A DNA stretch of 42,871 nt from Bryobacterales bacterium (GTDB lineage Bacteria; Acidobacteriota; Terriglobia; Bryobacterales; Bryobacteraceae): assembly GCA_025462945.1 (NCBI GenBank), contig JAOAPO010000284.1, positions 1 through 42,871 of the forward strand, in the 5' to 3' direction. The number at the start of each line of letters is the position of its first letter. The first letter of the stretch is position 1. The notes under the pieces were generated by a model. That model saw only the letters and a program-made list of their open reading frames with translations, did no database searches and was not told the origin of the DNA. This document shows, in pieces, positions 247 through 15,492 of this stretch. The position numbers and the translations under genes are program-made.

Positions 247-3200
247 TTATCTCCCTGCCTGCGGCGTCCGTTTGGCGCGCTCGACCGTCGCCTGAACGCC
301 CGTTGAAACCGAGGAATCGTGAGCCGCGCGAATAGCCCTGAAAATGGTTCGTTCGTCAGAGCCGCGGGCGTCGACGTAGTACGTGTGCTTGTCGCCGCCT
401 CCCCCAGCCATGCCTACTGAGCCCTCCGCTATTCTGCTGGATGCCGCACTGATAGACCGAGGCGTTAGATCGTAACCTCTGGAGTTCGGCTGCATCAGCT
501 TTTTCGATTCGGAGTGACTGAGTATCCGGCCGTCCCCGCCCGTGAAGATCTCCGGGCCTTCTTCTCCAACGAGGTATGACTTTCCCCGCCGGGTTGGGCC
601 GCCCCTCGCTCGAGCACCGTCGAAAATGATCGAACTGTCGGTTGAGAACTGCGGCCCGCCGCCACCGCCACCTGCGAGTCCGCCGATCGCCGCCCCCACG
701 AGAGAGCCGAGGAAGGGGCCCCAGAATCCCTGCTTCCGTTGAATGGCTTGCGCTGCCGGTTGCTGGCTGCCGCCCTGAGACATCACCACATAGAAAGGGT
801 TTCCCGGCGTGCCGTCCGGCTTCCCCATGCCGCCCGCCGCATTCGGTCCGATGCCCTGAGGCATTCCGCCAAGGCTAAAGATCATCCCGCCGGCGGATCC
901 GCCGCCGAATGTGCCACGAAGCGCGTCAGTGACAGAGCCCCGGCTGCCCGGAGACCCGGGGCCAGACTTGCGGCCCAGCGCGCCCAGTAACCCCTGCAAG
1001 CTCGAACGGATCGTGCTGTTCACCATCTGGCGGCCGATGTCCTGCATCATTGCGCCCCAGTTCGTCGACTTGCCGGTCAGAAGGTCCGTGAGGTTGTCAG
1101 AGATACGATCGAGCGCGGACTCCATGCCCTCATAAAGGATTTGGCCGGGCTGTTTCGCCCTCCGCTGCATATCAGTGAAGAATGCCCGCCACCCAGCCGA
1201 CAGTGAGCCGTTCGCGAGCTGCTGTTGGGTGAGGATCTGGAGCCGCTCATCCTCCAGTGCCTTTCGAGCGTTCTCGATGTCGAGAATGTTCTGATCGGTT
1301 ACTTTGATCTCGTTGAGCGCCTCGGACTCTTTCGCGAGTTGCTTGAGGCGAAGCTGGAACCCACCGCCCGCACCCAGCGCCTCCTGCTGTAACCGGTGCC
1401 GGTACGTGGCCATCTGCTCTTCGTGATCCCCCCGGGCGTCTGCAGCTTCCCGGTCAATCTGTGCGATCGCTTCAGCGTAGTGCTCATCAGAGCGCCGCTC
1501 CTCAACGATGGCCCGCTCGACCCCCAAGGCTTTCAGGCGAATGGTAAGGATCTGATCAGCGAGCGCCGCCTCGTCACCGTCAGACTGGATTCCCGCCATC
1601 CGGATATTGCGGCCCGCGGTGTCGTGAACCATCTTTCGCTTGTCTGTGGCGTCCTGCCAGAGAATGCCCTGGACTTCTTTGGCCACCGTGGCCGACTTCT
1701 CGCGCTCAGATTTCACCTGAGCAACGACGCCAGCAGCCCACTCTTTCTGTGCGCGCGCCCAGTTGAGCTTCTCCGCCTCGAGCGCCGAGGATACCGAAGC
1801 AATACCCGCGGTGAGGGTCGCTTTGCGCAGTTCGTCACTGGCACCCGGCGGAAGCTGGCTCATGTTGAAATCGGTTTGCTTTGCAGCCTTTTCCGTCGGG
1901 GAGAGCAGGCCCGCCATCGTGGCCGCATGGTTGAGGGCCGCAATCTTACCCGGTTCCGCCAGGCGCTCGGCCTTGGCCTTATTGAGCCGCTCCTCGGCTT
2001 CGGCCAGCTTCTTAACGGCAGCTTCAGCAAAAGTGATCTGCTGAGTGGCCGAGATCACGTCTCGCGAGTAGTCGCGCACCTGGTCTGCTGTGAGCTCGCC
2101 GGCGTGCTTGCCCGATGTGTTGGCTTCGAGAGCTTCGATCGCGGTCGACCGTCTACCCTGGGCGGCGCCCAACATCGACTCCAGCCCCTCGCGAGTATTC
2201 GCCCGCGAACCGATGATCCCGCTCGCCTGGCCGCTGAGCAGTTTCGCGACGTCGGACTGGCCTGCAGCCTGGCCCCGCGCCCGGTTCGTCTCCATGGCGA
2301 ATTTGGCAATCTGGTCGTTCTCGCCAAAGCTGTCACCGAACAGATACTTCAGGGCCAGCGAGGCATACGGCGTATTGTCTGTTTTCCCGTAGACAGCTTT
2401 TGCATATTCGCCCTGTGCACCCTGGAGCGTTGCTCCGATGGCGTTGATCGAGGACTTGCCCGCGTCGTACGTCTTCGCAGCTCCCACGACGAGGGCCTGC
2501 TTCATCTTCTCGCCTAATGCCTGGAACCCTGTCCCCAGTGAGAGCACCTCATCCTTGAGGTTGAGCATGTCCTGGCGCATCGCAAACACCTGGTTGCGGC
2601 TGGTTTCGCTCAGCGTGAGCCCCCAGCTGTCGACGGCAACCGAACTCGCCGCGAACTGCTGATTTAACTGCGGGAGGACTTTTTCCCCGAGTTCTTCGCC
2701 GAACAACTTGACGGCCAGTCTTGCGCGCTCTGTGGGGTCAGTGATCGCGGACATCCGCTCAGCAATTTGACCGAGCAGTGCGGGGGTCGCAGCCCCTTTG
2801 GCGAAATCTGGGATGTTGAGACCGCTCAGGGCGCTTTGGACTCGCGAAGATCCTATGCCCGACCGAAGCGATGCGAGTGCCGCCAGCATATCGGACGAGT
2901 TCGCCCCACTCATGCCGGAGGAGAGCCCTATCTTCTCGATGTCCCCGAAGGCGACGCCTTTGGTCGCCGCGAGCATGGACTGTTGCTCAATCAGCTTGCC
3001 GCGGGCGTTTACGAGCTTGAGTGTCTCCTCGATCAGTATGCCGGTGGCGATTGTCGCCGCCGTGAAGGGGGTGGGTGAAAGAGCAAACCTCAGACCTCGA
3101 AATGACTCCTTCAGGAGGTCGAGGTTTGTTGCGCCCCGCGCTGTGGTGCCGAAATACTGCAGCGCCGCTGCGGTCGCAACGGAGGCGGCATCAGCGAAGT

Positions 3201-3372
3201 GGTGGGCCCCGTCGGAGGCCTCGGCCATACTCTTGGTCACTGCGGCGCCTGCGGCCCTGCCAGCCAGCCTCCATGAATCGAGGTGCTTATTCGCCAGCGC
3301 GATATCTTCCTGGAACTTTTGTGTTCTGGCGTCAATTGAAAAGTAGATCTGTCCGGCTCTGGCTCTCGGCAT
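247..3372 (-). CDS. Phage tail tape measure protein
   Basis: The 1041-residue product would form the extended rod inside a long phage tail and set its length. It has an alanine-rich helical N-terminus, a hydrophobic stretch near residues 95-120, long charged helical regions with coiled-coil character in the middle (about 400-760), and a glycine-rich C-terminal part. Near residues 932-943 it carries SYLVGEEGPEIF, a motif typical of the C-terminus of lambda/HK97-type tape measure proteins. It follows the gp10-like gene by 3 bases. A tape measure this long implies a siphovirus-like tail of considerable length, unexpected for a satellite that borrows tails. Assignment is firm. Confidence 0.93.
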   Translation of the reverse strand: MPRARAGQIYFSIDARTQKFQEDIALANKHLDSWRLAGRAAGAAVTKSMAEASDGAHHFADAASVATAAALQYFGTTARGATNLDLLKESFRGLRFALSPTPFTAATIATGILIEETLKLVNARGKLIEQQSMLAATKGVAFGDIEKIGLSSGMSGANSSDMLAALASLRSGIGSSRVQSALSGLNIPDFAKGAATPALLGQIAERMSAITDPTERARLAVKLFGEELGEKVLPQLNQQFAASSVAVDSWGLTLSETSRNQVFAMRQDMLNLKDEVLSLGTGFQALGEKMKQALVVGAAKTYDAGKSSINAIGATLQGAQGEYAKAVYGKTDNTPYASLALKYLFGDSFGENDQIAKFAMETNRARGQAAGQSDVAKLLSGQASGIIGSRANTREGLESMLGAAQGRRSTAIEALEANTSGKHAGELTADQVRDYSRDVISATQQITFAEAAVKKLAEAEERLNKAKAERLAEPGKIAALNHAATMAGLLSPTEKAAKQTDFNMSQLPPGASDELRKATLTAGIASVSSALEAEKLNWARAQKEWAAGVVAQVKSEREKSATVAKEVQGILWQDATDKRKMVHDTAGRNIRMAGIQSDGDEAALADQILTIRLKALGVERAIVEERRSDEHYAEAIAQIDREAADARGDHEEQMATYRHRLQQEALGAGGGFQLRLKQLAKESEALNEIKVTDQNILDIENARKALEDERLQILTQQQLANGSLSAGWRAFFTDMQRRAKQPGQILYEGMESALDRISDNLTDLLTGKSTNWGAMMQDIGRQMVNSTIRSSLQGLLGALGRKSGPGSPGSRGSVTDALRGTFGGGSAGGMIFSLGGMPQGIGPNAAGGMGKPDGTPGNPFYVVMSQGGSQQPAAQAIQRKQGFWGPFLGSLVGAAIGGLAGGGGGGPQFSTDSSIIFDGARARGGPTRRGKSYLVGEEGPEIFTGGDGRILSHSESKKLMQPNSRGYDLTPRSISAASSRIAEGSVGMAGGGGDKHTYYVDARGSDERTIFRAIRAAHDSSVSTGVQATVERAKRTPQAGR

Positions 3373-4584: not shown

Positions 4585-5784
4585 CTACGGGCGAGCCGCG
4601 AGGGTCACGAACGCGCTCTTCGTGAGGCCGCCGTTCTTCGGAGTGATGGCCGATTTCAACAGCGGCTGGCCGTCGACGCGAAGACTAAACCGGTAGACGC
4701 CTTCGCCGTTGATGAACCGAACCTCCAGAGAGAGCTTGAGGTCCAGCGGCTTCTCGTAAACGACGTAGTACGGAAGGCTCGCGAGCACGATGTCCCCCAC
4801 CGCGCCCAAAGTGTTCGCCGTTTCCGAGATCACGATCGGGATCGTCATTAGGCGGCCGCGCGGCGCGCCGGCGTCGGGCGGGGTGAATAAGTTGCTTGCC
4901 GTGCTCGCACCCCCGCCGATCAGCGGAGCCGTGTAGAGGCTGGCCAGCAGCTCGGGACTGACGATGAAGACAGCAGAGTCGAAGCACTCCGGAAGCAGGC
5001 GCCGCACCATTGCCGTGATGTTCGCCGGAGAGATGGTTGCCGCCGTCTGCCCCCCTTCAGCCGCGGCCGTGATGAGAGCGGGGCTGTTCAGAATGCCGAG
5101 CGGCTGGCCTGCGCCGTTGCCTGCCGAAATCATCGAATCGAGGACGTAGGCCCCTTCAGCGGCAAATGCGTTGGCCACGAACGCGCCCAGTGCCCCACCA
5201 CTTTCGGTGACTTCGTCTGAAACATACACCAGGGCGATGAGCTTGTTGAGACTCATCTCCAGGCGGCGGAACTTCGGCTTTTTCGCCGTGACCGTATCGC
5301 CCTCATTGGCCCAGTAGCTCTGAACGCCGCCCCAGCGAGAACCCTCAGCCCGGCTAGTCTCATCAATTGCGGGAAGCGAAATAGACCGCTGAGTGGCCGG
5401 AAGCCGCATACAGCGCGATGCCAGCGGTGACGAATACTGGACCATCTCAGTGAGTGCGTCCGAGTATTCTGCGGGAATCATGAACCCGCCTTCAGAGGGA
5501 TCGCCGTTACCATTCAGCCCGGAACTAGCGCGGAACTCCAATAGCCGGGGATCGGTGCGCCCAAGCGCGTCGTTGCGGACGGCTCCAAGGTATTCCCCAA
5601 AGCCCCTCCACTTGCCCGTGTCGCTTCCTTGTTCCAGTGCGTCAAGGCGTCGCCGCGTGTCGTCGAGCTTATCGGCGGTGGTGAGGCCCAGCCTGAGCGA
5701 CGTCCCGATCATCTCGTTCGCCGTTGGCTCGCGGCGGTAGCCGCCCGTCTGGCCGGATCTGTTTTCATTTGTTCCGTGTTGCAT
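4585..5784 (-). CDS. HK97-fold major capsid protein
   Basis: The 399-residue product is a phage major capsid protein of the HK97 family. Residues 1-85 are a charged helical N-terminal arm with LDDTRRRLDALEQG, comparable to the delta or scaffold domain. The coat core begins at about residue 87 with GLNGNGDPSEGGFMIPAEY, the standard entry of this family, followed by the E-loop-like region and LNKLIALVYVSDEVTE. Later segments include YVLDSMISAGNGAGQPLGIL and the C-terminal VYEKPLDLKLSLEVRF typical of P- and A-domain ends. A GGAGAAA ribosome-binding site precedes ATG 5784. No portal or large terminase gene precedes it. Confidence 0.93.
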   Translation of the reverse strand: MQHGTNENRSGQTGGYRREPTANEMIGTSLRLGLTTADKLDDTRRRLDALEQGSDTGKWRGFGEYLGAVRNDALGRTDPRLLEFRASSGLNGNGDPSEGGFMIPAEYSDALTEMVQYSSPLASRCMRLPATQRSISLPAIDETSRAEGSRWGGVQSYWANEGDTVTAKKPKFRRLEMSLNKLIALVYVSDEVTESGGALGAFVANAFAAEGAYVLDSMISAGNGAGQPLGILNSPALITAAAEGGQTAATISPANITAMVRRLLPECFDSAVFIVSPELLASLYTAPLIGGGASTASNLFTPPDAGAPRGRLMTIPIVISETANTLGAVGDIVLASLPYYVVYEKPLDLKLSLEVRFINGEGVYRFSLRVDGQPLLKSAITPKNGGLTKSAFVTLAARP

Positions 5785-8034: not shown

Positions 8035-9363
8035 TTAGCCAACCACTCCTGTTTTCTGGTAGCGCCACTGGAGTTTGTTCCCATCTCGACGCCGGAAGCG
8101 CTCCCACCCCAGTCGTTTGAGCGTTGCTCCGACAGCCATCTGATCGCCCTTGGTCCAGTGCTTCGGTTCCTTGCCAATGCAATGGCTCAAGATGTCCGCG
8201 ACAGTGACAGAGGTTGTGTCTGAATCCAGATCTGCGACCGGGTGCCCTTGGACGTCATACCGAGCGCCTGGATTCTGCAGCCATGCCTCGATCGGCGAGT
8301 CCCAGGGACCTTCCTGATAGCGCTCGCCCTGTTCGGCTTCCGCCTGCTCTATCGAGTCCTGGTCCTTCAGCCACCACGACGCGCCCGCCCTGAACTCTGC
8401 GATAGCTTCGGCCCAGAGCTGGTCTCGATCGCGCGCAAGGGCCTTGATATCAATAGCTCCGCAGCGAACGGGCCAGAAGCGGCGGGCGCCGGTCTCGTCC
8501 CTCAGGTATGCATCGTGATTGACCGTGCCAGCGAAAACGCAGTCCCGAGGCCATTCGATTATGTTCTTGCCATACGGCAGCCTGAAACGGTCGAACGTGG
8601 CCGACATGAAGCCCTTGATCCGGCTGCTCTCGGAACGGTTGATCGAGTCGAGTTCGGCGATCTCAACAATCCACACGCCGTGCGACTGCATAGCAGCGTC
8701 TTTGCTGCCGAGATCCGAGATCTGATCAGTAAACCATTCGCCGGCGAGTGTGCGGAGCGCCGTGGACTTGTAGATGCCTTGCGGCCCCTCGAGGACCAGG
8801 CAGCAGTCTGCTTTCGTCCCGGGCTTCAGTATCCGCGCGACGGCCGAGATCAACCAGAGCCGCCCAAACGTGCAGGCGATCTCCTTCGTGGTGCCAAGGT
8901 AGGCCCCGCACCAAGTATCCAGCCGAGGCTTGCCGTCCCATTTGAGAGAGTTCAGGTACTCTCGAACCGGATGGAAGCGCGATGCCGCTGCGACCGTCTG
9001 CACCGCTTCACCAGCGAGATTGGTCCCGACGAAGAGCCCTTGACGCTGCAACCATTCCGCCGTGCGTCGATCGTCGTTATCGCCCCACTGCTCGCCAGCC
9101 GGTTTACCCCATGGAGATGCACGCTTCGTTTGAACCTTGACGGCGAACTCATTGAAGGCGAGAACACGCTCCCACTCAGGGGCTTCGGATAGGGCCGTGA
9201 TCGCGTTCGCCAGTAGCGGCCGAACACCGCCGCGGCTGTCCCTGATTAGGGATCTGTGCCAGGCGGCCGGCATCTTCACAACCTTCTCTGACTTGGAGGC
9301 GGCCTCCTGCTCTTTGAGGATCTCGTCGCGAGCTGCTCCCTCGAAATGTTCGGCGGTGATCAA
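8035..9363 (-). CDS. VapE/D5-like replicative helicase (virulence-associated E family)
   Basis: The 442-residue product is a P-loop ATPase of the VirE/VapE family, which act as replication helicases in phages and phage satellites. The family entry motif HPVREYLNSLKWDGKPRLDT is at residues 131-150. The Walker A variant GPQGIYKST is at 193-201, Walker B WIVEIAELD at 231-239, and a sensor-like FAGTVNHDAYLRDETGARRF follows. The start is TTG 9363, overlapping the previous stop as TTGA, which indicates coupled translation. Residues 1-130 contain no primase motif that I can see. The iteron array begins at the base next to its stop codon, so this protein is the likely initiator that binds it. Confidence 0.9.
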   Translation of the reverse strand: MITAEHFEGAARDEILKEQEAASKSEKVVKMPAAWHRSLIRDSRGGVRPLLANAITALSEAPEWERVLAFNEFAVKVQTKRASPWGKPAGEQWGDNDDRRTAEWLQRQGLFVGTNLAGEAVQTVAAASRFHPVREYLNSLKWDGKPRLDTWCGAYLGTTKEIACTFGRLWLISAVARILKPGTKADCCLVLEGPQGIYKSTALRTLAGEWFTDQISDLGSKDAAMQSHGVWIVEIAELDSINRSESSRIKGFMSATFDRFRLPYGKNIIEWPRDCVFAGTVNHDAYLRDETGARRFWPVRCGAIDIKALARDRDQLWAEAIAEFRAGASWWLKDQDSIEQAEAEQGERYQEGPWDSPIEAWLQNPGARYDVQGHPVADLDSDTTSVTVADILSHCIGKEPKHWTKGDQMAVGATLKRLGWERFRRRDGNKLQWRYQKTGVVG

Positions 9364-10055
9364 GCGGCTAAGCCTCGCGCTTCCTTGGAGTCGGCCAGCA
9401 TGTCCACGATTAGAGATGTGATGCGCTCGGCTTCCATCCGATCGGCCCGCCCGTATTCCATGACTCGCCGGGCCGCCTCTGGGTGTGTCCGGCAGGTGCG
9501 GACATACGCGCCCGCCACCAGCCGCGGACTGGCCTGTTCAGGGAGAAGCGCCGTGATGGGGAGGCGGGAGATCCTCTCGCCGATGGATTCGGCAAGGGTG
9601 TCCGCCCCTTCCTGCCATGCCCACTGCAGAACGTCGACCAGCTGGCGCTTGCGAGCTTCCGCGAGAAGACGCAGACCATGCGCCCAGTCGGCTATCTCAG
9701 CCGCTAGATCTGGCGCCGCGGCTCGAGCACGGTTCCAGCGATCACGATCTTCGGGTGTCACCGTTCCGGATTCGGGCGGGATGCCGGCGAGTTCCGCAAC
9801 GCGGCGTACGGCATCGGTGAAACCGCTGAGCCCCTCGATCCGCTGAACGAAGTCGAACACGTCACCGTCGGCCTCGCAGCCGAAGCAGTGAAAGCGTTGC
9901 CGATCGGTGGAGACCGAGAAGCTCGCCGTCTTCTCGTGATGGAAGGGGCACGGCGCCACCCGGCGAACCCGGCTCACGCTCCGGAGCGGCAGATATCCGA
10001 GAACGATCGTTGCGATGTCGGCGCCCGCCTTCACCCGCTCGCGGTCGTATCTCAC
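9360..10055 (-). CDS. CHC2 zinc-finger primase-like protein without catalytic domain
   Basis: Residues 1-100 form the DnaG-type zinc-binding domain: Cys36, His39, Cys57 and Cys60 in C-x2-H-x17-C-x2-C, within PCPFHHEKTASFSV and FHCFGCEADGDVFDFV. DnaG would continue with an RNA-polymerase/Toprim domain, but after a charged linker this 231-residue protein has only an alanine- and arginine-rich helical C-terminus. It may therefore supply template recognition while another protein primes. The start is GTG 10055, overlapping the previous stop as GTGA. The downstream VapE-like gene is also coupled, so the two probably act together in replication. Confidence 0.85.
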   Translation of the reverse strand: MRYDRERVKAGADIATIVLGYLPLRSVSRVRRVAPCPFHHEKTASFSVSTDRQRFHCFGCEADGDVFDFVQRIEGLSGFTDAVRRVAELAGIPPESGTVTPEDRDRWNRARAAAPDLAAEIADWAHGLRLLAEARKRQLVDVLQWAWQEGADTLAESIGERISRLPITALLPEQASPRLVAGAYVRTCRTHPEAARRVMEYGRADRMEAERITSLIVDMLADSKEARGLAA

Positions 10056-12496: not shown

Positions 12497-12721
12497 ATGG
12501 AAGAAAAAAGAATTACGGTAGCCGAGGCAGCAAAAGAGTTGAACGTTGGCATCGAGACCATGCGTCGATACATCCGAAGCGGCCTGTTCACGGGCGCGAA
12601 GATCGGTCGAGCCTACCTGATCCGCGAGGCGGACGTGAAGCGATTTCTGGCTGACAAGTTCGCGGAGGCTGATGCGAAGCGCAAGCCGGCCGACGTCGGC
12701 CGTAGCGGGGGCGAGGAGTGA
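12497..12721 (+). CDS. Excisionase-family helix-turn-helix protein
   Basis: This 74-residue protein is almost entirely an excisionase-type HTH (MerR-like wing): ITVAEAAKELNVGIETMRRY, then IRSGLFTGAKIGRAYLIREA and DVKRFLADKF. Such proteins bind DNA at attachment sites to direct excision or act as small regulators. It has a good GGGAG ribosome-binding site. Its stop overlaps the next gene's GTG by four bases. With the divergent pair and dyads upstream, it is a candidate switch gene of the element; whether it is an excision factor or repressor cannot be told from sequence. Confidence 0.85.
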   Translation: MEEKRITVAEAAKELNVGIETMRRYIRSGLFTGAKIGRAYLIREADVKRFLADKFAEADAKRKPADVGRSGGEE

Positions 12722-13002
12722 AGGAGGTGACCAGAGCCGAGAGGCTCAGTAAAATTCGTGCAATGTCACCGGAGGACCACGTCCATATGTTCATCGATCT
12801 GCTCGGTGTCCTTCCAGAACAAGACCCCCTGCGGCATCGAATACAGCGGTTTTTCGAGGATTTAGATGATTTGAGGTTCGATCCCAAGGCCCTTGCGGAG
12901 TTGAGCGATGGTGACTTTGATGCTTGGGAGGCTCATGCCACTTCGGTCCTTAAAGGGGAGCGCGAAGAGATCGCCCTCGTGGCTAGGAAACGAATCCAGT
13001 GA
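12718..13002 (+). CDS. Small acidic helical protein coupled to the HTH gene
   Basis: The 94-residue product starts with GTG 12718 inside a GTGA overlap. It is acidic and helical (LSKIRAMSPEDHVHMFIDLL, then RIQRFFEDLDDLRFDPKALA), and ends in KGEREEIALVARKRIQ. It has no recognised domain. Being translated together with an HTH protein, it may modulate that protein or belong to the same regulatory unit. The 325 bases after its stop, up to the next gene, contain no convincing gene, only a hairpin and a long-spaced inverted repeat. Confidence 0.65.
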   Translation: MKEVTRAERLSKIRAMSPEDHVHMFIDLLGVLPEQDPLRHRIQRFFEDLDDLRFDPKALAELSDGDFDAWEAHATSVLKGEREEIALVARKRIQ

Positions 13003-13120: not shown

Positions 13121-13149
13121 GGGGTGCCGGGCAGTGACGCCGGCACCCC
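13121..13149. terminator. Perfect 10-bp hairpin, possible terminator
   Basis: GGGGTGCCGG (13121-13130) and CCGGCACCCC (13140-13149) form a perfect stem around a 9-base loop, about 120 bases after the stop of the gene ending at 13002. No T-run follows, so intrinsic termination would be atypical. It could also be an RNA or DNA binding site. The rest of 13003-13327 shows no gene. Confidence 0.45.
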
Positions 13150-13258
13150 AAGGCAACCCAGCGAAGCAGACAGGAACCCCAATCACAGAATTACTGATCC
13201 CGTGCCAAAAATGCGACACTTTCGCCAGGAACCTACCGGAAACAATTCACTATGTAAA

Positions 13259-13300
13259 TGTTAGGTTACTGAAAATACAGCCAGTTAAGACTTCCTAACA
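13259..13300. promoter_or_regulatory. Inverted repeat upstream of the protease pair
   Basis: TGTTAGG (13259-13265) and CCTAACA (13294-13300) are exact 7-base inverted copies separated by 28 bases, ending 27 bases before the first ATG of the small-protein/retropepsin pair. TGCTATGCT at 13311-13319 resembles an extended -10 element, but no matching -35 is seen. The arrangement suggests a regulated promoter; this is inference. Confidence 0.3.
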
Positions 13301-13327
13301 CTTTGGCACGTGCTATGCTCTCCCCAA

Positions 13328-13597
13328 ATGGTTATGGACAAAGAATTGACCATCAATGACGAAATCGCGGCCTATGAGGGACTGCGACACCATCTTGAAG
13401 TCGAGCACATGGGTAAGTGGGCGTTGATAAAGAATCGTGAGCTCGTATCACTGTTCGACTCTTTTGATTCGGCAGCAGAAGAGGCAGTGAAGCGGTTCGG
13501 TCGCGGAACCTATCTAATACGTCAAGTTGGAGCGCCGCCCGTTTCTATGCCCGCATCCGTAATGTTTTGCCCCGACTATGGCACACTGCGGGTTTAG
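13328..13597 (+). CDS. Small DUF5678-like protein, partner of the retropepsin gene
   Basis: The product (89 residues from ATG 13328; GTG 13310 and ATG 13334 are alternatives) has an acidic helix NDEIAAYEGLRHHLEVEHMG followed by GKWALIKNRELVSLFDSFDS, AAEEAVKRFG and the strand YLIRQVG. This 'GKWv.i.dgevv...dsf.eAl..A...fg...ylirqVg' pattern is that of small DUF5678-type proteins, often found directly upstream of retropepsin-like genes. Function is unknown. Its end overlaps the protease start by 20 bases, so the two are co-expressed. It could be the substrate, inhibitor or partner of the protease; the sequence does not decide. Confidence 0.75.
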   Translation: MVMDKELTINDEIAAYEGLRHHLEVEHMGKWALIKNRELVSLFDSFDSAAEEAVKRFGRGTYLIRQVGAPPVSMPASVMFCPDYGTLRV

Positions 13598-14030
13598 TGA
13601 CGATCCGAGCAAGGGTGTCTCCGGTCCCGATTCTCTGGTGAGACTCGGACCCACGCTCCAAGTGGACATCGGGTTTGACCCGTCTTACGACCCCCACGGA
13701 ACCATTCTGCCTGCACCTGGCGTAACGGGAGTTCACGCTTTGGTTGACACTGGGGCAACCGAGTGCTGCATTGACGTCTCCCTCGCCACCTCACTTAACC
13801 TTCCCATCGTGGATCGCCGCAACGTGTCAGGTATTGCAGGAAGCTCGGAGGTTAATGTCTACATGGCGCAAGTGCACTTTCCGTCGCTCGGCAAAACTAT
13901 GTATGGAGCTTTCTCCGGTGTATCGCTGCTGGCTGGAGGCCAGGTCCACAGTGCTCTCATTGGAAGAACTTTCCTCCGGCATTTCACGATGACATATGAC
14001 GGCACGACCGGAATTGTAGAAATCGTTTAG
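13578..14030 (+). CDS. Retropepsin-like aspartic protease
   Basis: This 150-residue protein has the retroviral-type aspartic protease fold signature: HALVDTGATECCIDVSLA with catalytic DTGAT at residues 57-61, the flap region VSGIAGSSEVNVYMAQVHF, and the closing SALIGRTFLRHFTMTYDG, where 'aLIGrdfL' is the second conserved motif. One DTGA per chain means it should work as a homodimer. No signal peptide is visible, so it probably acts in the cytoplasm. It lies between the control genes and the integrase, in the position of accessory genes. Its target is unknown. Confidence 0.85.
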   Translation: MAHCGFSDDPSKGVSGPDSLVRLGPTLQVDIGFDPSYDPHGTILPAPGVTGVHALVDTGATECCIDVSLATSLNLPIVDRRNVSGIAGSSEVNVYMAQVHFPSLGKTMYGAFSGVSLLAGGQVHSALIGRTFLRHFTMTYDGTTGIVEIV

Positions 14031-14154: not shown

Positions 14155-15270
14155 ATGGCGATCTACAAACGCGGCGACGTCTACTGGTATTCGTTCATCT
14201 TTGCTGGGCAGCGCGTCCAGGAGAGTTCGAAGAGCAAGAGCAAGACGGTCGCGAAGGAATCCGAGAAGCAGCGGCGCCGGGAGCTTGAGCGCGGGCTGAA
14301 CGGCCTCGAATCCACGCGCGAGACGCGAATCCGGACCGTTGCTGACGTTGCGGCTGAGTACCTGGAGGATTACCGCCTTCGGCACCGCGGCGTGAAGTTC
14401 GCTGAGTATGCACTGAAACATATCAGCCGGCTGCTCGGGGAGCGGATGGTGGTCGAGATTGGTGAAGCGAGCGTGAAGGACTACCAGAGCAATCGCCTAC
14501 GCGAAGCGGCAGCGCCCAAAACGATCAACGACGAGGTTGGTTTTCTGATCCGCATCCTGGGCGAAGCAGGCGACGTTCTGCGAGTTCGGCTAAAGAAGAA
14601 CAAAGCGCTGAAGCTGAGCGTACCGCCGACGACAGGTAAGCCCTACAGCCACGACGAGAAGCAGGGCCTCACGGACGGCGCGGCTAAGGCGAGATCTCCA
14701 CACATCGAGTTTGCACTCTGTCTGGCGTTGAACGCGGGCATGCGCGACTCCGAGATCAAGCGGATAACGTGGGGCCAGATCAACACCGCAAAGGGCGTCA
14801 TCACCGTTGGCAGAGCAAAGACAGCGGCGGGAGAAGGCCGAACGATACCGATCGGCGAGACGATCCAAACTGCCCTCGCCAGGCATCGCGAGCGGTACGT
14901 GAAGAAGTTCGGCGAGCCGCGGGCCGACTGGTACGTCTTCCCGTTCGGCAGGCCAACACCGTCAGACCCGACGCGACACGTCACCACCTTAAAGACAGCG
15001 TGGGGGAACGTACGAAAGGCAGCAAAGGTAACGGGTCGCTGGCACGACGCACGCCACACGCTCATTACCGAGCTGGCCGAGACCGGTGCGGGCGATCAGG
15101 CCATCATGGACATCGCTGGCCATGTTTCGAAGCAGATGCTGGCCCGATACAGTCACATCCGGATGCAGGCCAAACGGGACGCACTTCAGAAGGTGGCCGA
15201 AAAAAATCTTGAAAATAGTCGGCGCTCAGAGCAGCAAGTGAACCCAAATACCCACACGCCCCCCGATTGA
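14155..15270 (+). CDS. Tyrosine recombinase/integrase
   Basis: The 371-residue product is a phage integrase that would insert and excise the element at the adjacent tRNA-Asn. An N-terminal SAM-like core-binding domain (about residues 58-140) precedes the catalytic domain. The catalytic set is complete: Arg197 (GMRDSE), Lys222, His297 and Arg300 (RWHDARH), His323 (AGHVS) and Tyr332 (ARYSHI). It is transcribed toward the tRNA, which begins 147 bases beyond its stop. It may have its own promoter in the 124-base gap after the protease gene. Confidence 0.95.
   Translation: MAIYKRGDVYWYSFIFAGQRVQESSKSKSKTVAKESEKQRRRELERGLNGLESTRETRIRTVADVAAEYLEDYRLRHRGVKFAEYALKHISRLLGERMVVEIGEASVKDYQSNRLREAAAPKTINDEVGFLIRILGEAGDVLRVRLKKNKALKLSVPPTTGKPYSHDEKQGLTDGAAKARSPHIEFALCLALNAGMRDSEIKRITWGQINTAKGVITVGRAKTAAGEGRTIPIGETIQTALARHRERYVKKFGEPRADWYVFPFGRPTPSDPTRHVTTLKTAWGNVRKAAKVTGRWHDARHTLITELAETGAGDQAIMDIAGHVSKQMLARYSHIRMQAKRDALQKVAEKNLENSRRSEQQVNPNTHTPPD

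Positions 15271-15417: not shown

Positions 15418-15492
<75 letters not shown>

What the first reader, a model, noticed from the sequence alone, without database searches (positions are those of the whole stretch)
13259..14030. Retropepsin and DUF5678-like pair as cargo next to the integrase
A cytoplasmic, intact retropepsin overlaps a small acidic DUF5678-like protein, with a 7-base inverted repeat ahead of the pair. The pair is recurrent in bacterial genomes but its function is unknown. Placement between switch genes and integrase is where defence or addiction modules often sit, so a protease-based module is a possibility.
Basis: partly seen in the sequence, partly recalled or inferred. Interest (0 to 1): 0.58.

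Follow-up and report, generated by a model that had tools for sequence, protein, structure and literature searches.

The report
Phage-borne retroviral-type protease with partner
A bacterial virus integrated in a bacterial chromosome carries, beside its integration gene, two small overlapping genes, a protease of the kind retroviruses use and a partner protein that may control it, a widespread but unstudied pair that moves between phages as one unit.

Summary
The pair is real: a DUF5678-like gene (13328-13597) overlaps by 20 nt an intact cytoplasmic retropepsin (13578-14030), just before the prophage integrase. The 7-base inverted repeat is not beyond chance. The pair recurs: 26 of 29 related retropepsin loci in genome contigs and 10 of 12 in viral contigs have the partner directly upstream. 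In 396 genomes of the window's phylum 16 of 16 family retropepsins had the partner, whereas 12 of 28 assessable partner genes had no retropepsin. Two related phages show it as a discrete ~850-nt cassette: one carries it at a site uninterrupted in the other, which carries a different-lineage pair nearby. In chromosomes its neighbours are mostly ordinary genes, so defence-island placement is not supported. The partner's C-terminal tail is highly conserved yet predicted disordered alone, as expected of a segment that folds on its protease. Best explanation (0.42): an exchangeable accessory cassette in which the partner restrains the protease in trans, toxin/antidote-like, to the lysogen's benefit. 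Protease activity, inhibition, toxicity and phage resistance are untested. New variant of a known kind (bacterial retropepsins such as RimB); interest 0.5.

The parts
13328..13597 (+). DUF5678-like partner protein, 89 aa, predicted helix-strand-strand-helix-strand fold plus C-terminal tail
13499..13567 (+). codons 58-80 of the partner: GRGTYLIRQVGAPPVSMPASVMF; strand plus tail, the most conserved block; proposed protease-binding element (inferred)
   Evidence: entropy; residues 73-81 pLDDT < 50
13578..14030 (+). cytoplasmic retropepsin (clan AA, A2-like), 150 aa
13746..13763 (+). catalytic motif DTGATE (Asp57)
   Evidence: DTG invariant in 43 of 43 rows
13259..13300 (.).
12497..12721 (+). excisionase-like HTH_17 protein
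   Evidence: E 3e-12; excise, E 7e-11
12718..13002 (+). unassigned small ORF, 94 aa, before the pair
14155..15270 (+). tyrosine integrase of the prophage
   Evidence: Phage_integrase, E 7e-21
15418..15492 (-). tRNA-Asn, probable attachment site at its 3' end (the other att end was not found)
8035..10055 (-). prophage replication genes: VapE-like (8035-9363) and primase zinc-finger protein (9360-10055)

Best explanation
The pair is a self-contained two-gene accessory cassette (a phage 'moron') carried in the integrase-side cargo region of an Acidobacteriota prophage. The downstream gene makes a cytoplasmic retropepsin that, like its fold relatives, should work as a homodimer. The upstream DUF5678-like protein is its dedicated partner, encoded first and overlapping it, so probably translationally coupled. 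The partner's conserved strand-plus-tail (GRGPYLIRQVGAPPxTLPASV), whose tail is disordered alone, most likely folds onto the protease and holds it in check in trans, as a propeptide does in cis. Loss of the partner, or an event in infection that frees the protease, would release proteolysis. In the prophage this would serve lysogen maintenance or exclusion of other phages, in the manner of a toxin/antidote pair. Shown: gene pair, conserved active site, co-inheritance, purifying selection, cassette exchange between phages, one-sided loss. Inferred: homodimer, binding through the tail, inhibition rather than activation, toxicity, and benefit to the lysogen.
For: Partner directly upstream of the retropepsin in 26 of 29 genome-contig loci, 10 of 12 viral loci and 16 of 16 family retropepsins in 396 phylum genomes. 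Partner without intact retropepsin: 12 of 28 assessable cases in the phylum and 5 of 12 assessable viral contigs. Tail residues 70-80: mean column entropy 0.94 bits, against 1.35-1.56 for the helices and core, yet pLDDT < 50 at 73-81 in a model of the partner alone. Distances of the two proteins correlate over 40 pairs (r = 0.88, largest of 1000 shuffles 0.35). dN/dS 0.07-0.49 in the paired sets. Cassette presence/absence and replacement between related phages. GC3 unlike the prophage.
Against: Retropepsins without the partner exist at the edge of the family: viral L061 and L063 and the Enterobacter phage-like plasmids L023/L107, plus a truncated gene without partner (L045). Partner-only genes could equally mean that the partner has its own job; one solitary lineage is under weak purifying selection (dN/dS 0.19-0.89). 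Co-inheritance of adjacent genes is expected whatever they do. The model of a joined pair gave no usable placement of the partner (pLDDT 36-48 over most of it). Chromosomal neighbours are not defence genes. No toxicity, inhibition or binding data.
Confidence: 0.42

Rival explanations
1. The partner is an adaptor or activator: it brings substrates to the retropepsin or stabilises its dimer, as RimK and RimB regulate each other, and the pair is a regulatory protease module.
For: Obligate pairing of the family retropepsin with the partner (16 of 16) fits an activator as well as an inhibitor. Characterised bacterial A2 proteases often involve partner proteins (PMC11957791, introduction text shown; passages).
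Against: An activator or adaptor without its protease should be useless, yet 12 of 28 partner genes in the phylum stand without it and a phage contig keeps the partner while the protease is truncated (L069).
Confidence: 0.25
2. The pair is a true anti-phage (superinfection) defence system: infection frees the protease, which cuts a phage or host protein and aborts infection.
For: Moron-like cassette exchanged between phages; position near the integrase in three phages; partner-only genes in phages including a 441-kb contig (L076) could be counter-defence; 18 of 43 relatives weakly match PADLOC candidate PDC-M08B (best E 9.2e-5).
Against: The window protein itself matches no PADLOC model; the partner matches no PDC model. 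Chromosomal copies are not in defence islands. No phage-challenge data.
Confidence: 0.2
3. Host-type regulatory gene pair picked up by chance, with no benefit to the prophage; its role lies in bacterial physiology.
For: Most non-viral copies lie among ordinary chromosomal genes; the pair is rare in phages: no match in 50,697 phage records.
Against: Repeated presence in phage contigs, purifying selection in phage copies (dN/dS 0.12-0.22), a different-lineage pair in a related phage.
Confidence: 0.1
4. The partner is the substrate: the retropepsin trims its C-terminal tail and the product is the effector.
For: The tail is hydrophobic, extended and conserved, like a cleavage site (sequence).
Against: Partner-only genes mostly keep a tail although no intact protease is encoded beside them (L065, L067, L069, L076; L193 has lost it).
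Confidence: 0.03

Closest known systems
RimB (with RimK), Pseudomonas; and RloA proteases (PMC11957791, PMC12239564)
   Same: Bacterial A2-type retropepsin with DTG motif working with a partner gene of the same operon; horizontally patchy distribution reported for rim genes.
   Different: RimB's partner is an ATP-grasp glutamate ligase and its substrate is polyglutamate; here the partner is an 89-aa DUF5678-like protein and no rimK-like gene is beside the pair. RloA has a signal peptide.
APRc of Rickettsia (5c9f), DDI1 and retroviral proteases
   Same: Fold: Foldseek E 1e-5 to 1e-3; sequence profile matches DDI1 at 1.4e-7.
   Different: APRc is described as a rickettsial protease suggested to modulate surface proteins (PMC4140852 and PMC8649778, listing and abstract starts only); DDI1 is eukaryotic and multidomain (recalled). 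I know of no DUF5678-like partner for either (recalled).
Pfam DUF5678 (PF18929)
   Same: Weak match of the window protein (18.1 bits) and 13 of 52 relatives; two over-cut-off DUF5678 genes (G399, G403) also precede a TIGR03698-type retropepsin on the same strand.
   Different: Window protein is below the curated cut-off and carries a conserved C-terminal tail beyond the Pfam domain.
Type II toxin-antitoxin modules
   Same: Two small overlapping genes, first gene product acidic, moves as a cassette, protease lost more often than partner; in phage contig L193 a partner gene sits in the toxin slot of a HigBA-like locus.
   Different: No toxicity shown; no DNA-binding domain found in the partner (Pfam); the putative toxin is a protease.
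PADLOC candidate system PDC-M08
   Same: Its B model is weakly similar to 18 of 43 relatives.
   Different: No match of the window protein; the partner matches no PDC model.

Membership tests
A2 / retropepsin-like aspartic protease | D-T/S-G catalytic motif in a single-domain protein of about 100-150 aa | tested here: met
   DTG 57-59 invariant in 43 of 43 rows; 150 aa
A2 / retropepsin-like aspartic protease | Retropepsin fold | tested here: met
   Model part pLDDT mostly above 90; Foldseek matches XMRV protease 1e-5, APRc 6e-5, DDI1 7e-5; RVP over cut-off
A2 / retropepsin-like aspartic protease | Homodimer with proteolytic activity | not testable with these tools
   needs protein
Pfam DUF5678 (PF18929) | Score above the gathering cut-off (23.2 bits) | tested here: not met
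   window protein 18.1 bits, E 0.0024; filed as DUF5678-like only
RimB family | Co-operonic ATP-grasp ligase RimK | tested here: not met
   neighbours of the pair in the window are an unassigned ORF and the integrase
RimB family | Cleavage of polyglutamate | not testable with these tools
   needs assay
Type II toxin-antitoxin module | Small overlapping gene pair, antidote gene first | tested here: met
   20-nt overlap, partner first; overlaps of 1-32 nt in most relatives
Type II toxin-antitoxin module | Toxin not found without antidote; antidote may be solitary | tested here: inconclusive
   16 of 16 paired and 12 of 28 solitary in the phylum, but remote retropepsins without partner exist (L023, L061, L063)
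Type II toxin-antitoxin module | Toxicity neutralised by partner | not testable with these tools
   needs expression test
PADLOC candidate PDC-M08 | Match to PDC-M08B model | tested here: not met
   window retropepsin: no family at E <= 0.01; 18 of 43 relatives match weakly

The most novel reading that the evidence does not exclude
A retroviral-type protease serves bacteria and their phages as the lethal arm of a protease/inhibitor immunity module. The DUF5678 tail is a trans-acting pseudosubstrate or dimer-blocking strand, and solitary DUF5678 proteins, including one on a 441-kb phage contig, are antidotes with which phages disarm the module.
Probability: 0.17. Interest if true: 0.82.

Novelty: new variant of a known kind. 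Interest (0 to 1): 0.5.

Why it matters
Bacterial retropepsins are few and poorly understood, and how they are regulated is largely open. A widespread, horizontally moving pair with a dedicated small partner would give a genetically tractable case of trans control of a retroviral-type protease. If the partner is an inhibitor, its tail is a natural peptide inhibitor for this fold. If the pair protects lysogens, it adds a new protease class to prophage-borne exclusion and a function for a domain of unknown function.

Tried and rejected
Defence-island placement: Pfam on 120 neighbour ORFs from 17 genome-contig pair loci (L036, L038 and L040 dropped as near-copies of L035) gave mostly ordinary families; only the 25 commonest of 124 families are shown, so single mobile genes can be missed. 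PHROGs on the same set named one transposase, one integrase and one DNA methyltransferase among the 25 of 70 families shown. An integrase profile built from the window's own integrase found only itself in all loci, pair and control alike, and is uninformative, so the regions fetched for it gave no result there.

Inverted repeat as operator or cassette end: at chance level. Sigma-70 scan: one site, minus strand, shuffled mean 0.6; no terminator.

Docking of the tail: a joined reading of the pair was modelled with 27 retropepsin rows; the partner part had low confidence, so the test is inconclusive. Alignments with rows of both halves were misaligned and not used for the model. Coordinates of models cannot be read here.

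Known fold for the partner: none recognised (Foldseek best E 2.2; second look best Z 3.2); a missing match does not show that the fold is new.

Attachment site at the far end of the prophage: the tRNA 3' segment occurs once in the genome as held, so the left end lies in a gap or uses a shorter core.

Tree: retropepsin family not ordered by phylum for Acidobacteriota (5 changes against 5.6 shuffled), but few branches are supported, so transfer between phyla is likely, not proven.

A Pseudomonadota survey with both profiles was planned and not done.

Full report
What is there. The window is a whole contig (C525, 42,871 b) of a draft genome. Bases 1 to about 15,400 are part of a prophage. Pfam recognises a VapE-like protein, a primase zinc finger, an excisionase-like HTH protein and a tyrosine integrase. 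By eye the ORFs at 247-3372 and 4585-5784 look like tape measure and capsid. A tRNA-Asn lies just beyond the integrase. The far attachment site was not found.

The pair. The DUF5678-like gene (13328-13597) overlaps the retropepsin gene (13578-14030) by 20 nt; the retropepsin ends about 125 nt before the integrase start. The retropepsin passes three Pfam cut-offs. Its family profile matches DDI1 proteases in the PDB at 1.4e-7, and the modelled fold matches XMRV protease, Rickettsia APRc and DDI1. The partner matches DUF5678 below the cut-off. GC3 is 0.54 and 0.59 for the pair, against 0.72-0.75 for integrase, VapE and the capsid-like gene, so the pair looks like a later acquisition by the phage.

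Recurrence. A scan of genome contigs gave 29 loci; 26 have a partner hit directly upstream, and L045 (truncated retropepsin), L051 and L052 do not. A viral scan gave 12 loci; 10 have the partner (in L062 weakly, 26 bits), L061 and L063 do not. Scans with the partner gave 13 distinct viral contigs: 7 with an intact retropepsin, 1 cut by the contig end (L068), and 5 without (L065, L067, L076, L193; L069 with the retropepsin truncated before the active site). None of 50,697 phage records matched the window retropepsin or a partner protein. Among 72,556 plasmid records only two Enterobacter phage-like plasmids encode a distant retropepsin, without partner.

One-sided loss. In 396 genomes of the phylum the retropepsin profile gave 16 hits above 50 bits, then a gap to 43.5 bits; all 16 have a partner hit just upstream. 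The partner profile gave 30 hits in 24 genomes: 16 paired, one cut by a contig end (G298), one ambiguous (G360), and 12 without a retropepsin match at E 0.1 in the fetched surroundings; one of the 12 has stops. By eye, two of the 12 retain scraps of the lost protease (L111, L118). Caveats: before building the retropepsin profile A3 I dropped L023, L045 and L061, which lack the partner, and L001, L029 and L034; the first look scores at most 10-13 candidates per genome.

The partner's tail. In 17 close partner sequences the block FGRGPYLIRQVGA has mean entropy 0.22 bits and the following eleven tail positions 0.94, against 1.35-1.56 for helices and core and 2.36 for the last positions, which include the overlap with the next gene. 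A model of the partner alone shows helix-strand-strand-helix-strand, with residues 73-81 under pLDDT 50. Conserved but disordered alone suggests that the tail folds on another molecule; the protease encoded beside it is the obvious candidate. This is inference. No PDB fold stood out.

Selection and co-inheritance. dN/dS is 0.07-0.49 for both genes in two sets of close paired copies, and 0.19-0.89 in five solitary partner genes. Distance matrices correlate at r = 0.88 over 40 pairs and 0.76 over 25 close ones; no shuffle of 1000 reached the close value and the largest was 0.35 in the full set. Adjacent genes that travel together give this too.

Cassette behaviour. Phage contigs L053, L055, L056 and L072 share backbone segments of about 74-94% identity. 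In L072 the pair with about 50 nt of leader lies between segments that are contiguous in L053; L053 carries a pair of another lineage, in the opposite orientation relative to the backbone, some 360 nt away. The pair is thus gained, lost or replaced as a unit of about 0.85 kb without a recombinase of its own. It lies near an integrase in L056 and next to one in L058, as in the window. In chromosomes the neighbours are ordinary genes of many kinds. Among small ORFs within 450 nt of the pair, recurrent ones were found only between the related phages L053 and L072 (matches within the four Chloroflexi near-copies were not printed). The tree of 26 retropepsins does not group Acidobacteriota, with weak support.

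Mechanism. The simplest account that fits obligate pairing, the partner gene coming first, one-sided loss and a conserved disordered tail is a protease restrained in trans by its partner. One-sided loss disfavours an activator. The phage setting favours a benefit to the lysogen, such as exclusion or addiction; that step is weakest, because chromosomal copies are not near defence genes and nothing has been tested. I put inhibitor-type control at 0.42, adaptor/activator at 0.25 and strict anti-phage defence at 0.2 (it overlaps the first).

Comparison with what is known. Search of the held papers for DUF5678 gave one unrelated paper (listing only); retropepsin with bacteria and toxin-antitoxin gave none; retropepsin-like with bacterial and aspartic protease gave 18 (listing). 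RimB (PMC11957791: outline, passages and Discussion read) and RloA (PMC12239564: passages) are the nearest characterised bacterial retropepsins; both work with partner genes, but of other kinds. Within those searches I found no description of this pair.

Noticed in passing
L193:6560-7103: In a 34-kb viral contig a DUF5678-like gene is spliced to the last ~14 codons of a HigB/RelE-like toxin gene (tail IRIARKRLKEVKRG; compare LRIARKRLKEIGNG in Mycetohabitans L198; toxin name recalled) directly before its HigA-like antitoxin: the toxin gene was replaced by the partner gene.
   Followed up: partly
L076:9788-10261: A 441-kb viral contig encodes a solitary DUF5678-like protein with the conserved FGRGPYLIRQV block and a tail, without a retropepsin.
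   Followed up: partly
L156:9121-9354: A ribbon-helix-helix antitoxin-like ORF lies just upstream of the pair, where a toxin would be expected (one RHH_1 match among the immediate neighbours; assignment to this ORF by eye).
   Followed up: no
window 13121-13149 and 13201-13310: Perfect 10-nt hairpin GGGGTGCCGG/CCGGCACCCC and a 9-nt inverted repeat CGTGCCAAA/TTTGGCACG 92 nt apart in the intergenic stretch before the pair; possible operator or integrase arm sites.
   Followed up: no
L023:11492-11866 and L107:2872-3336: Two Enterobacter phage-like plasmids carry a retropepsin in reverse orientation among phage genes (tail genes in L023), without a DUF5678 partner.
   Followed up: partly
L119-L123: One family of the phylum (f48) keeps similar (78-91% identical) solitary DUF5678-like genes ending in PVLVGG in several genomes, without retropepsin.
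   Followed up: partly
L040:8910-10426 and L035:9328-10426: Chloroflexi loci with tandem DUF5678-like genes: two full pairs in L040, two partners and one retropepsin in L035.
   Followed up: no
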